Part shown: in pieces, positions 41,476-43,463 of the stretch
Position numbering within the stretch: position 1 is the first letter of the stretch
Layout: each line of letters starts with the position of its first letter
Source of the DNA: Myxococcus stipitatus
GTDB taxonomy: Bacteria; Myxococcota; Myxococcia; Myxococcales; Myxococcaceae
Length of the DNA stretch: 64,000 bases
Direction of reading: 5' to 3'
Assembly (NCBI RefSeq): GCF_037414475.1
Contig: NZ_CP147913.1
Coordinates: forward strand, 7,500,001-7,564,000
Notes under the pieces: model-generated
Databases searched by the model: none
The model's input: only the letters and a program-made list of their open reading frames with translations
What the model was told of the DNA's origin: nothing
Program-made: the position numbers and the translations under genes

Positions 41476-42324
41476 ATGCGAAGGCTCGTCCTGCTCGCCC
41501 TGTTCGTGGCACTCCCAGGTTGTTTCTATCCCGCCGACCGCGGCCGCGCCCTCGAGGCGAAGGTCGACCGTCTCGGCGCCGACTCCGCGCAGATGCAGGC
41601 GGAGCTGAAGGAGGCGCGCGAACAACTCGCCGCCACCCTGCCGAAAATCGACGAGAAGGTCGCCGAGGTCACCAAGGCGCTCGATGGACTGGACACCGCC
41701 GCGCGCCGCAAGGACGCGGACATCGGCATCCAGCTCCAGAAGACGATGGAGGACCTGTCCCAGCTCCGGGGCCAGGTGGAGACATACCTCCACAAAATCA
41801 CCGAGCTGGAGACCGCCCTGGGCGCGCAGGACCAGAAGCTGCTCGCCATGCAGGGCACGGCCGCCGTGAAGGAGGCCGAGGCCAAGAAGAAGGCCGAGGA
41901 GCTCAAGCGCCCCGACAACGCCAAGGACTTCCTCGAGCTCGCCCGGGAGAAGGCCAAGGCCGGCGAGGTCCTTGTGGCGCGCCAGCTCTTCACCGAGCTG
42001 ATGAAGAAGTGGACCAAGGACCCGCTTCTGGGCGAGGCCCACTACGGCCTGGGTGAGACGTACTTCTCCGAGTCCAAGTGCCGCGAGGCCCTCTTCGAGT
42101 ACGGCAAGGTGGTGCAGGACCACCCGAAGACGGCGTCCGCGCCGGATGCGTACCTGCGCTCCTCGGAGTGCTTCGCTCAGCTCAAGATGCGCGACGAGTC
42201 GCGCATGGCGCTCGAGGAGCTCGTGAAGAGCTACCCCAAGTCCGGCGCCGCCAAGACGGCCAAGGAGCGCATCGCGGAGCTGGACAAGGCCAAGGTTCCC
42301 CCGAAGAAGGGAGGCAAGAAGTGA
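41476..42324 (+). CDS. CpoB/YbgF-like lipoprotein with coiled coil and TPRs
   Basis: A 282-residue lipoprotein (leader LVLLALFVALPGC). Residues about 30-140 form a coiled coil (AKVDRLGADSAQMQAELKE, EVTKALDGLDTAARRKDAD). The second half has tetratricopeptide-type repeats (AREKAKAGEVLVARQLFTEL, AHYGLGETYFSESKCREALF). This matches the Tol-Pal partner CpoB, which coordinates outer-membrane constriction with cell-wall synthesis. Typical tol genes are not adjacent, so the assignment is by architecture. It is coupled to the next gene: GTG start one base inside the stop region. Confidence 0.8.
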   Translation: MRRLVLLALFVALPGCFYPADRGRALEAKVDRLGADSAQMQAELKEAREQLAATLPKIDEKVAEVTKALDGLDTAARRKDADIGIQLQKTMEDLSQLRGQVETYLHKITELETALGAQDQKLLAMQGTAAVKEAEAKKKAEELKRPDNAKDFLELAREKAKAGEVLVARQLFTELMKKWTKDPLLGEAHYGLGETYFSESKCREALFEYGKVVQDHPKTASAPDAYLRSSECFAQLKMRDESRMALEELVKSYPKSGAAKTAKERIAELDKAKVPPKKGGKK

Positions 42325-43463
42325 GCATGCGTCCCCTGCGGCTCGCCGCGCTGGCGCTCTGGCTCCTGCCCCTGGTGGCGGGCGCCGCGCCCAAGCAGCT
42401 CGTGCTGCTCTTCACTGGAGACAATGGGGGCGAAATCGCCCCCTGTGGTTGACGACACAACCCGTCTGGCGGTCTGGCCAGACGAAAAGTCGCGATAGAG
42501 CAAGAGCGCGCCAAGGGCGTCCCGGTGTTGGTGTTGGACGCGGGCAACGCGCTCTTCAAGAGCCGGGACAGTGGCGAGGCCCCGGATGCCCGTGCACGCG
42601 CGGAGTTGTTGCTCGCGCAGATGGACGCACAGGGCACCGTCGCCATGGCGGTGGGCACGCGTGACTTGGGGCTGGGCGTGGACTTCCTGCGCAAGCAGAC
42701 GCGCAAGTCCAAGCTGAAGCTGTTGTCCGCGAACCTGGTGGATGCCCAGGGCAAGCTCCTGTTCCCCGCGTCGCTGGTGACGCAGGTGGGCGGGTTCAAG
42801 GTCGGCGTGGTGGGCGCCTCGCCCGAGAAGGCCGCGCCCGAGGCCATGGACCCCATCATCAAGGGCAAGGCGCCCGGGATGCGGCGGGGCCTGCCGGTGG
42901 CGCCCGCGGTCGCCGCCGAGGCGAAGCGGCTGCGCGCGCAGGAGCACGTGGACCTGGTGGTGCTGCTCGCCGCCGTGCCCTACGACGACGTGCTCAAGCT
43001 GGCCAATGACCTGGAGGGCGTGGACTTCGTCCTGCAGTCCCATGAAGGACGGGGCTCGGGCATCCCGCAGCGGGTGGGGATGACCACGTTGCTTCAGCCA
43101 GGGGAGCGCGGCCGGCAGATCGCCAAGGTGGAGCTGACCGTCAACGGCCCCGGCCGCTTCATGGACATCTCCGAGCAGTCGCGCGCCAAGGACCAGCTTC
43201 GCCTCGTCGAGTCGAACCTCGCCCGGGCGAAGGAGCGCATCGCCCAGGCGACCGACCCGGCGCAGAAGGGGGCGCTCGAGTCGGCGGTCGCCAGCCTGGA
43301 GGCCCGCCGCACCGCCTTGCAGAAGACAGCGGCGGAGGGCGCAACCCCGGCGCCCCGGACGCATCTACTGTCCTACATTCAGCTGGGCCCTGACGTGCCG
43401 GGAGATCCGGTCGTCCAGAAGGCAGTGGAGCGCATCGAGCCCCCGGGCTCGGCGGGCCACTGA
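42321..43463 (+). CDS. UshA-like secreted protein with an in-frame TGA, probable selenoprotein
   Basis: The frame from GTG 42321 (ribosome site AAGGGAGG six bases upstream; ATG 42327 is an alternative) encodes a signal peptide (LAALALWLLPLVAGAAP), then LLFTGDNGGEIAPCG, then TGA at 42450-42452, then in the same frame RHNPSGGLARRK and on to the stop at 43463. UshA-like 5'-nucleotidase relatives normally read CGC...GGLARR here, so the TGA replaces the second cysteine. With the TGA as selenocysteine (residue 44) the product is 380 residues. The coding signal is strong on both sides. Past the motif come VLVLDAGNALF and a C-terminal coiled coil. The classic metal-binding DxH is not evident. Function is unproven. 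Confidence 0.85.
42453..42492 (+). promoter_or_regulatory. candidate bacterial SECIS element
   Basis: Immediately after the TGA: outer stem CGAC/GTCG (42453-42456 with 42489-42492), then an 8-bp perfect stem CGTCTGGC/GCCAGACG (42463-42470 with 42477-42484) capped by the six-base loop GGTCTG. Eighteen bases separate the TGA from the loop. In E. coli fdhF the SelB-binding loop also contains GGUCU, about 17 bases after its UGA. There is no T-run after the hairpin, arguing against a terminator. Confidence 0.8.

What the first reader, a model, noticed from the sequence alone, without database searches (positions are those of the whole stretch)
42321..43463. Probable selenoprotein: UshA-like secreted protein with TGA in place of the second Cys of a Cys-Gly-Cys motif
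One stop codon, TGA at 42450-42452, divides an otherwise continuous frame. Before it: signal peptide and LLFTGDNGGEIAPCG. After it, same frame, no shift: RHNPSGGLARRK and 330 more codons. Related UshA-like proteins, as I know them, have CGC then GGLARR, so the TGA sits at a Cys position, the classic sign of selenocysteine. Right after it is a hairpin with outer stem CGAC/GTCG, an 8-bp perfect inner stem and loop GGTCTG, 18 bases from the TGA, comparable to the E. coli fdhF SECIS, whose loop also contains GGUCU. The hairpin also encodes sensible conserved residues. A plain annotation would call two broken pieces. I know of no described selenoprotein of this type in myxobacteria.
Basis: partly seen in the sequence, partly recalled or inferred. 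Interest (0 to 1): 0.95.

Follow-up and report, generated by a model that had tools for sequence, protein, structure and literature searches.

The report
Myxobacterial UshA-like selenoprotein, haem-free form
A gene that looks broken by a stop codon is almost certainly one gene for a secreted selenium-containing protein; its family was already known elsewhere, but this myxobacterial form lacks a haem part found in its longer relatives and has lost its ancestral metal site.

Summary
TGA 42450-42452 interrupts one open frame (42327-43463). Of 69 fetched homologue loci with that column, 56 have TGA and 13 have TGC/TGT. The genome has selA, selB, selD and a tRNA-Sec with anticodon TCA. A hairpin with loop GGUCUG follows; its Gly codon is GGT in 56 of 56 TGA genes and 0 of 13 Cys genes. 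At the same locus, a complete relative genome without selA, selB or tRNA-Sec over cut-off has TGC instead. Sec/Cys switched at least 5 times. So this is almost certainly a selenoprotein, though nothing was tested at the bench.

The kind is not new: UshA-like CxU selenoproteins have been in print since 2008 (PMC2398784), and NCBI has a model, NF041198. The window protein scores 185 bits against its cut-off of 275 and lacks the c554-type multihaem C-terminus of proteins that pass. The metallophosphoesterase ligands are mostly gone: the three His positions hold His in 0 of 41 members. Best reading: an exported selenol/thiol redox protein on a dismantled nucleotidase fold. That function is inferred.

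The parts
42327..43463 (+). UshA-like selenoprotein gene, ATG start preferred (GTG at 42321 possible), stop TGA 43461-43463
42450..42452 (+). TGA codon read as selenocysteine, third position of the Cys-Gly-Sec motif
   Evidence: 56 TGA and 13 TGC/TGT among 69 loci with the column; Sec machinery in the genome
42463..42484 (+). SECIS-type hairpin, 8-bp stem
42471..42476 (+). apical loop GGUCUG
   Evidence: Gly codon GGT in 56 of 56 TGA genes and 0 of 13 Cys genes
42327..42386 (+). probable signal peptide, cleavage near AGA-APK (by inspection only)
   Evidence: sequence; no predictor run
41476..42324 (+). upstream gene: coiled-coil/TPR protein with lipoprotein-type start (LPGC, by inspection); probable operon partner
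   Evidence: TPR_6 E 1e-9; beside 26 of 26 UGA loci and 4 of 13 Cys loci among L051-L090

Best explanation
The gene encodes a selenoprotein. SelB, bound to the GGUCUG hairpin just after UGA 42450, delivers Sec-tRNA(Sec), so the exported protein carries Cys-Gly-Sec (well supported by comparative genomics; not shown biochemically). The protein has the N-terminal fold of UshA/SoxB-type metallophosphoesterases, but most ligands of the two-metal site are lost, and the Cys-Gly-(Sec/Cys) motif lies in the loop directly after the old first ligand motif (shown on alignments; that loop is poorly modelled). Inferred function: an extracytoplasmic selenol/thiol redox protein. In long relatives a c554-type multihaem domain on the same chain could exchange electrons with the motif; the short myxobacterial form would need a separate partner, and the adjacent TPR lipoprotein-type protein is the best candidate. 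Confidence given is for selenocysteine; for the redox role I would say about 0.5.
For: selB 316 bits, tRNA-Sec 66.3 bits with anticodon TCA, selA 557.6, selD 385.8 in the same genome. Column is TGA in 56 and TGC/TGT in 13 of 69. TGA in 81 of 96 family genomes by my count, including 27 of 27 of the genus. G036, a complete genome, lacks selA, selB and tRNA-Sec over cut-off and has TGC at the same locus. selA over cut-off in 79 of 81 TGA and 1 of 4 Cys-only genomes (Fisher p 4e-4, relatedness not corrected). At least 5 Sec/Cys switches on the tree (48 of 69 rows). Synonymous constraint on loop and 3' arm. GGCGGTCT also in 9 of 9 distinct distant UGA genes looked at. Purifying selection after the TGA. 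Redox role: ligand loss, invariant C-G-(U/C), haem-fused relatives incl. one in this genome.
Against: No experiment. Covariation in the stem is weak: two pairs changed on both sides (24 of 500 shuffles reach that), covariation score no better than shuffles; of 4 hairpins folded singly only the window's is below shuffles, and one (L072) folds otherwise. No Rfam SECIS match. Misfits: G083 (87% complete) has TGA but no selA, tRNA-Sec or full selB over cut-off; G009 (80%) has TGA and no selA, though it has selB and tRNA-Sec; G088 has Cys although selA and selB are present. G051, a Cys genome, has a tRNA-Sec hit at 47.6 bits, just over the cut-off. GGTCT is not exclusive to UGA genes: an AT-rich Marinimicrobia Cys gene has it too (L144). 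The CGU loop has pLDDT under 50. No redox activity or partner is shown.
Confidence: 0.94

Rival explanations
1. Pseudogene or sequencing error: the TGA is a nonsense change and the rest is decaying.
For: A standard-code reading gives two pieces.
Against: The same TGA is in 81 of 96 family genomes by my count; dN/dS after it is 0.28-0.40; the column holds only TGA or Cys codons.
Confidence: 0.01
2. UGA is a real stop (or leaky stop) used as a switch: mainly a short secreted peptide is made, and the long form is a minor readthrough product with some other residue.
For: Bacterial Sec insertion is incomplete even in a good case: 30-40% in vivo for E. coli fdhF (PMC4513850, passages read), so a truncated product is to be expected as well.
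Against: The alternative residue in homologues is Cys in 13 of 13; loss of selA goes with Cys; synonymous sites of the hairpin are constrained in TGA genes alone within the family.
Confidence: 0.04
3. Still a working metallophosphoesterase (nucleotidase or SoxB-like) in which Sec only tunes the active site or a metal.
For: Fold matches UshA at Z 29.3 and SoxB at Z 27.6; family profile matches 5'-nucleotidases at E 1.4e-18; the first Asp of the DxH motif is kept in 35 of 41.
Against: Against a canonical paralogue of the same genome, the bridging Asp is Asn in 41 of 41, Asn of the GN motif is kept in 0 of 41, and the His of DxH, SH and DTH in 0 of 41 each (His stands one column beside the DTH position in 19 of 41, so that column could be misaligned). 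No Pfam domain is hit in the window protein, so no sign of the UshA C-terminal domain.
Confidence: 0.15
4. The CG(U/C) motif binds a soft metal or metalloid (for example Hg, Cu, Se/As species) instead of doing redox chemistry.
For: A CxU/CxC pair at the mouth of an old metal site is a plausible chelator (inference).
Against: Relatives fused to c554-type haem domains point to electron transfer; no metal-resistance genes were identified among the neighbours named (other neighbours were not examined).
Confidence: 0.2

Closest known systems
UshA-like (seleno)protein, NCBIfam NF041198 UshA_like_PCGU; COG0737 CxU family of PMC2398784, PMC9312934, PMC13188914
   Same: PCG(U/C) motif followed by GGLARR, UshA-like N-terminal domain, E 1.7e-54
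   Different: 185 bits against a cut-off of 275, ends at profile position 374 of 519; the five proteins over cut-off in the phylum (L157-L161) go on into a stretch with 3-4 CxxCH haem motifs, absent here
UshA-like selenoprotein family 2, NF049981 (CxxU in PMC13188914)
   Same: weak match over 70 residues, E 3.5e-9
   Different: 36.5 bits against a cut-off of 140; motif here is CxU
E. coli UshA 5'-nucleotidase and SoxB
   Same: fold (Z 29.3 and 27.6)
   Different: most metal ligands lost; no C-terminal UshA domain; CGU motif
Haem-fused UshA-like Cys paralogue in the same genome (L223)
   Same: PCGC motif and UshA-like N-terminal part
   Different: Cys, lipoprotein-type start, four CxxCH motifs at the C-terminus
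E. coli fdhF SECIS
   Different: unrelated stem; lower stem not conserved in this gene family

Membership tests
bacterial selenoprotein | in-frame UGA at a position that is Cys in homologues | tested here: met
   56 TGA, 13 TGC/TGT of 69
bacterial selenoprotein | selA, selB, selC, selD in the genome | tested here: met
bacterial selenoprotein | SECIS hairpin right after the UGA | tested here: met
   for the window; synonymous constraint; covariation itself inconclusive
bacterial selenoprotein | selenium in the protein | not testable with these tools
   needs 75Se labelling or mass spectrometry
UshA-like CxU selenoprotein (COG0737 sense, PMC2398784) | CxU motif in a UshA-like protein | tested here: met
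NF041198 UshA_like_PCGU | score over the curated cut-off (275 bits) | tested here: not met
   185.3 bits
NF041198 UshA_like_PCGU | full-length profile match including the C-terminal part | tested here: not met
   profile 18-374 of 519; that part carries haem motifs in L157-L161
UshA/5'-nucleotidase metallophosphoesterase | two-metal site ligands | tested here: not met
UshA/5'-nucleotidase metallophosphoesterase | fold of the N-terminal domain | tested here: met
   pLDDT 89.8; Z 29.3 to 1ho5
UshA-like selenoprotein family 2 (NF049981) | score over the curated cut-off (140 bits) | tested here: not met
   36.5 bits

The most novel reading that the evidence does not exclude
A branch of the UshA/SoxB superfamily has traded its two-metal site for a Cys-Gly-(Sec/Cys) redox centre, wired in long forms to a c554-type multihaem domain and in myxobacteria freed from it; in these aerobic predators this protein would be a main reason for keeping the selenocysteine machinery, since the best formate dehydrogenase homologue of this genome has no UGA.
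Probability: 0.3. Interest if true: 0.7.

Novelty: new variant of a known kind. Interest (0 to 1): 0.5.

Why it matters
At least five Sec/Cys switches inside one bacterial family, one of them at the same locus in a complete genome that has no selA, make the exchange of Sec for Cys testable in cultured relatives; Myxococcus xanthus strain AM003 is among the named records with the TGA (L095). It also shows an annotation gap: the curated model includes a haem-bearing C-terminus, so this short form falls below its cut-off, and a standard-code reading splits the gene. The lost metal site and the haem-fused relatives give a concrete lead that UshA-like selenoproteins are redox proteins; the 2008 survey listed them with SelD and FdhA as the major families without a Cys-based redox motif (PMC2398784, passage).

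Tried and rejected
The hairpin model R1 found no second convincing copy in the genome (next best E 1.2), but it is tuned to this gene and would miss other SECIS elements; it still finds the Cys orthologue of G036 at 49.7 bits. The best formate dehydrogenase homologue has no TGA and reads CARVCHAPS at what I take, from memory, to be the Sec/Cys position. The selD match has no stop inside.

Rfam: two chance-level hits on the other strand, no SECIS. Covariation as proof of the hairpin: not convincing; I rely on synonymous-codon constraint. Outer stem: rejected as a conserved element. Pfam: no domain in the window protein; only scattered weak families among the 41 members of A4. A link to the chemosensory genes upstream was considered; CheB/CheR lie near in close relatives but were not seen near most distant ones, whereas the TPR gene was (the stretches searched were 4-9 kb). 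Literature: one search gave 0 papers, nine, four, one (PMC13188914), five, one search listed 15 of 637; only PMC2398784, PMC9312934, PMC13188914 and PMC4513850 were opened for passages with matches; PMC3834832 had no match to my terms.

Full report
What is there. The frame 42327-43463 (+) is open except for TGA 42450-42452. It encodes a probable signal peptide, then APKQLVLLFTGDNGGEIAPCG-U-RHNPSGGLARRK and on to 336 codons after the UGA. The stop of the upstream TPR gene (TGA 42322-42324) lies two bases before the ATG, so the two genes probably form one operon.

Machinery. The genome (10,311,252 bases, one contig; window = C1:7500001-7564000) contains selB (316.3 bits with its C-terminal piece, cut-off 242.25), tRNA-Sec (66.3 bits, cut-off 47; anticodon tca), selA (557.6 bits) and selD (385.8 bits).

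The column. A search of the 96 genomes of the family with this protein matched 93. By my count from that list and, 81 genomes have an orthologue with one TGA (two of them, G027 and G083, as fragments; 27 of 27 of the genus, this genome included), 4 have only a Cys form (G036, G051, G088, G013), G049 has a fragment without the column, and 10 have no close orthologue. I fetched 70 loci (L021-L090, some genomes with two or three paralogues); 69 contain the column: 56 TGA, 12 TGC, 1 TGT. In a separate set of 66 loci of named and metagenomic records, 44 have TGA, 10 TGC, 8 TGT, and 4 did not match my motif: one is cut (L139) and three (L150, L153, L156) have CRTCP or CQVCP.

Natural experiments. 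G036 (2 contigs, 100% complete) has only a 23-bit scrap of selA, no tRNA-Sec over cut-off (best 46.8) and no selB over cut-off (best 180.3). Its gene stands in the same neighbourhood (CheB, CheR, TPR, L31, methylase) and has TGC. G051 (98%) has no selA and no selB over cut-off and has TGC, though one tRNA-Sec hit at 47.6 bits just passes. Across the 85 typed genomes, selA is over cut-off in 79 of 81 TGA and 1 of 4 Cys genomes (Fisher p 4e-4, relatedness not corrected). Misfits: G083 (87%, TGA, no selA or tRNA-Sec over cut-off, only a scrap of selB), G009 (80%, TGA, no selA, but tRNA-Sec 68.1 and selB 260 bits) and G088 (92%, Cys, selA and selB present, tRNA-Sec best 44.1). On a tree of 48 of the 69 rows with the Sec column masked, Sec/Cys needs 7 changes, at least 5 of them forced by starred branches (quick method).

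The hairpin. In UGA genes the Gly codon in the loop is GGT in 56 of 56 (6.8% of Gly codons elsewhere in these genes) and the Arg codon of the 3' arm is AGA in 43 and AGG in 12 of 56 (AGA 0.6% elsewhere). In the 13 Cys genes GGT, AGA and AGG each occur there 0 times (Fisher 3e-14 and 4e-13, relatedness not corrected). Since the residues are mostly the same in both groups, the constraint is on the RNA. Inner-stem cells pair in 88.4% of 41 distinct UGA sequences and 66.3% of the 13 Cys sequences. Changes on both sides are few and covariation is no better than shuffles. Nine of nine distinct distant UGA genes that I looked at (L142 = L230, L151, L169, L184, L225, L226, L227, L228, L229 = L183) carry GGCGGTCT at this place. 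GGTCT is not exclusive to UGA genes, though: the AT-rich Marinimicrobia Cys gene L144 has it.

What protein it is. The best NCBIfam model is NF041198 'UshA-like (seleno)protein' (E 1.7e-54, 185.3 bits, cut-off 275, profile 18-374 of 519). Over the 195 genomes searched in the phylum, 5 have a match over its cut-off. These five (L157-L161) have CGC motifs and end in a stretch with 3-4 CxxCH motifs; a similar protein, L155, hits Pfam Cytochrome_C554 at 3.8e-12. This genome has such a haem-fused Cys paralogue (L223, around C1:6732477-6733406, four CxxCH) and a canonical UshA-type protein (L224, around C1:3570582-3571364). The window protein is thus a short, haem-free variant. Other short forms occur in Marinimicrobia (CGC) and, truncated by its contig, a Desulfobulbaceae MAG (CGU).

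Structure. AlphaFold2 with 41 sequences: mean pLDDT 89.8, pTM 0.88, but residues 21-26, the CGU loop, are below 50. Best PDB matches are E. coli UshA (1ho5, Z 29.3, 2.6 A over 271 residues) and other 5'-nucleotidases; SoxB 2wdd has Z 27.6 (Foldseek). Aligned with the canonical paralogue L224, the Asp of DxH is kept in 35 of 41 members, while His of DxH, Asn of GN, His of SH and His of DTH are kept in 0 of 41 and the bridging Asp is Asn in 41 of 41. Naming these as metal ligands rests on what I know of the family; one column may be misaligned by one (His beside the DTH position in 19 of 41). Invariant residues of the 41 include C21, G22, C/U23, P27, G29, G30, D52 and GNALF; no His is invariant.

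Reading. A conserved Cys-Gly-Sec directly after the old first ligand motif, free exchange of Sec and Cys, and haem fusions in long relatives favour a redox role outside the cytoplasm. The TPR lipoprotein-type gene is beside 26 of 26 UGA loci and 4 of 13 Cys loci among L051-L090; those 4 are the Cys-only genomes, while the other 9 Cys genes are paralogues elsewhere. It is the best candidate partner. Substrate and electron donor are unknown.

Known or new. UshA-like selenoproteins (COG0737, CxU) are listed in PMC2398784 (2008), PMC9312934 (2022) and PMC13188914 (2026, with NF041198); I read passages, not whole papers. Searches for myxobacterial selenoproteins found no relevant paper (open-access library, listings only). 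I rate it a new variant of a known kind.

Noticed in passing
G000:C1:6732477-6733406 (L223): Own-genome paralogue with PCGC motif, lipoprotein-type start and four CxxCH motifs: a UshA-like protein fused to a multihaem domain.
   Followed up: partly
L055, L057, L059, L062-L066, L075: Nine Cys-type paralogues in Archangium-like and other relatives stand away from the TPR locus and lack the GGUCU loop; possible duplicated, selenium-independent versions.
   Followed up: partly
L099: Record titled Comamonas sp. KCTC 72670 holds a myxobacterial neighbourhood (CheB, CheR, TPR, L31, methylase at 60-93% identity), so the organism name is probably wrong.
   Followed up: no
L150, L153, L156: Phycisphaeraceae and Acidobacteria relatives have CRTCP or CQVCP (CxxC) in place of CGC before the GG(L/M)ARR stretch.
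   Followed up: no
window 34414-41390: Chemosensory gene set (MCP, hybrid CheA, CheB, CheR) directly upstream of the TPR gene.
   Followed up: no
G000:C1:2564792-2566795 (L187): Formate dehydrogenase homologue (751 bits) without TGA, so apparently of the Cys type although the genome makes Sec.
   Followed up: partly
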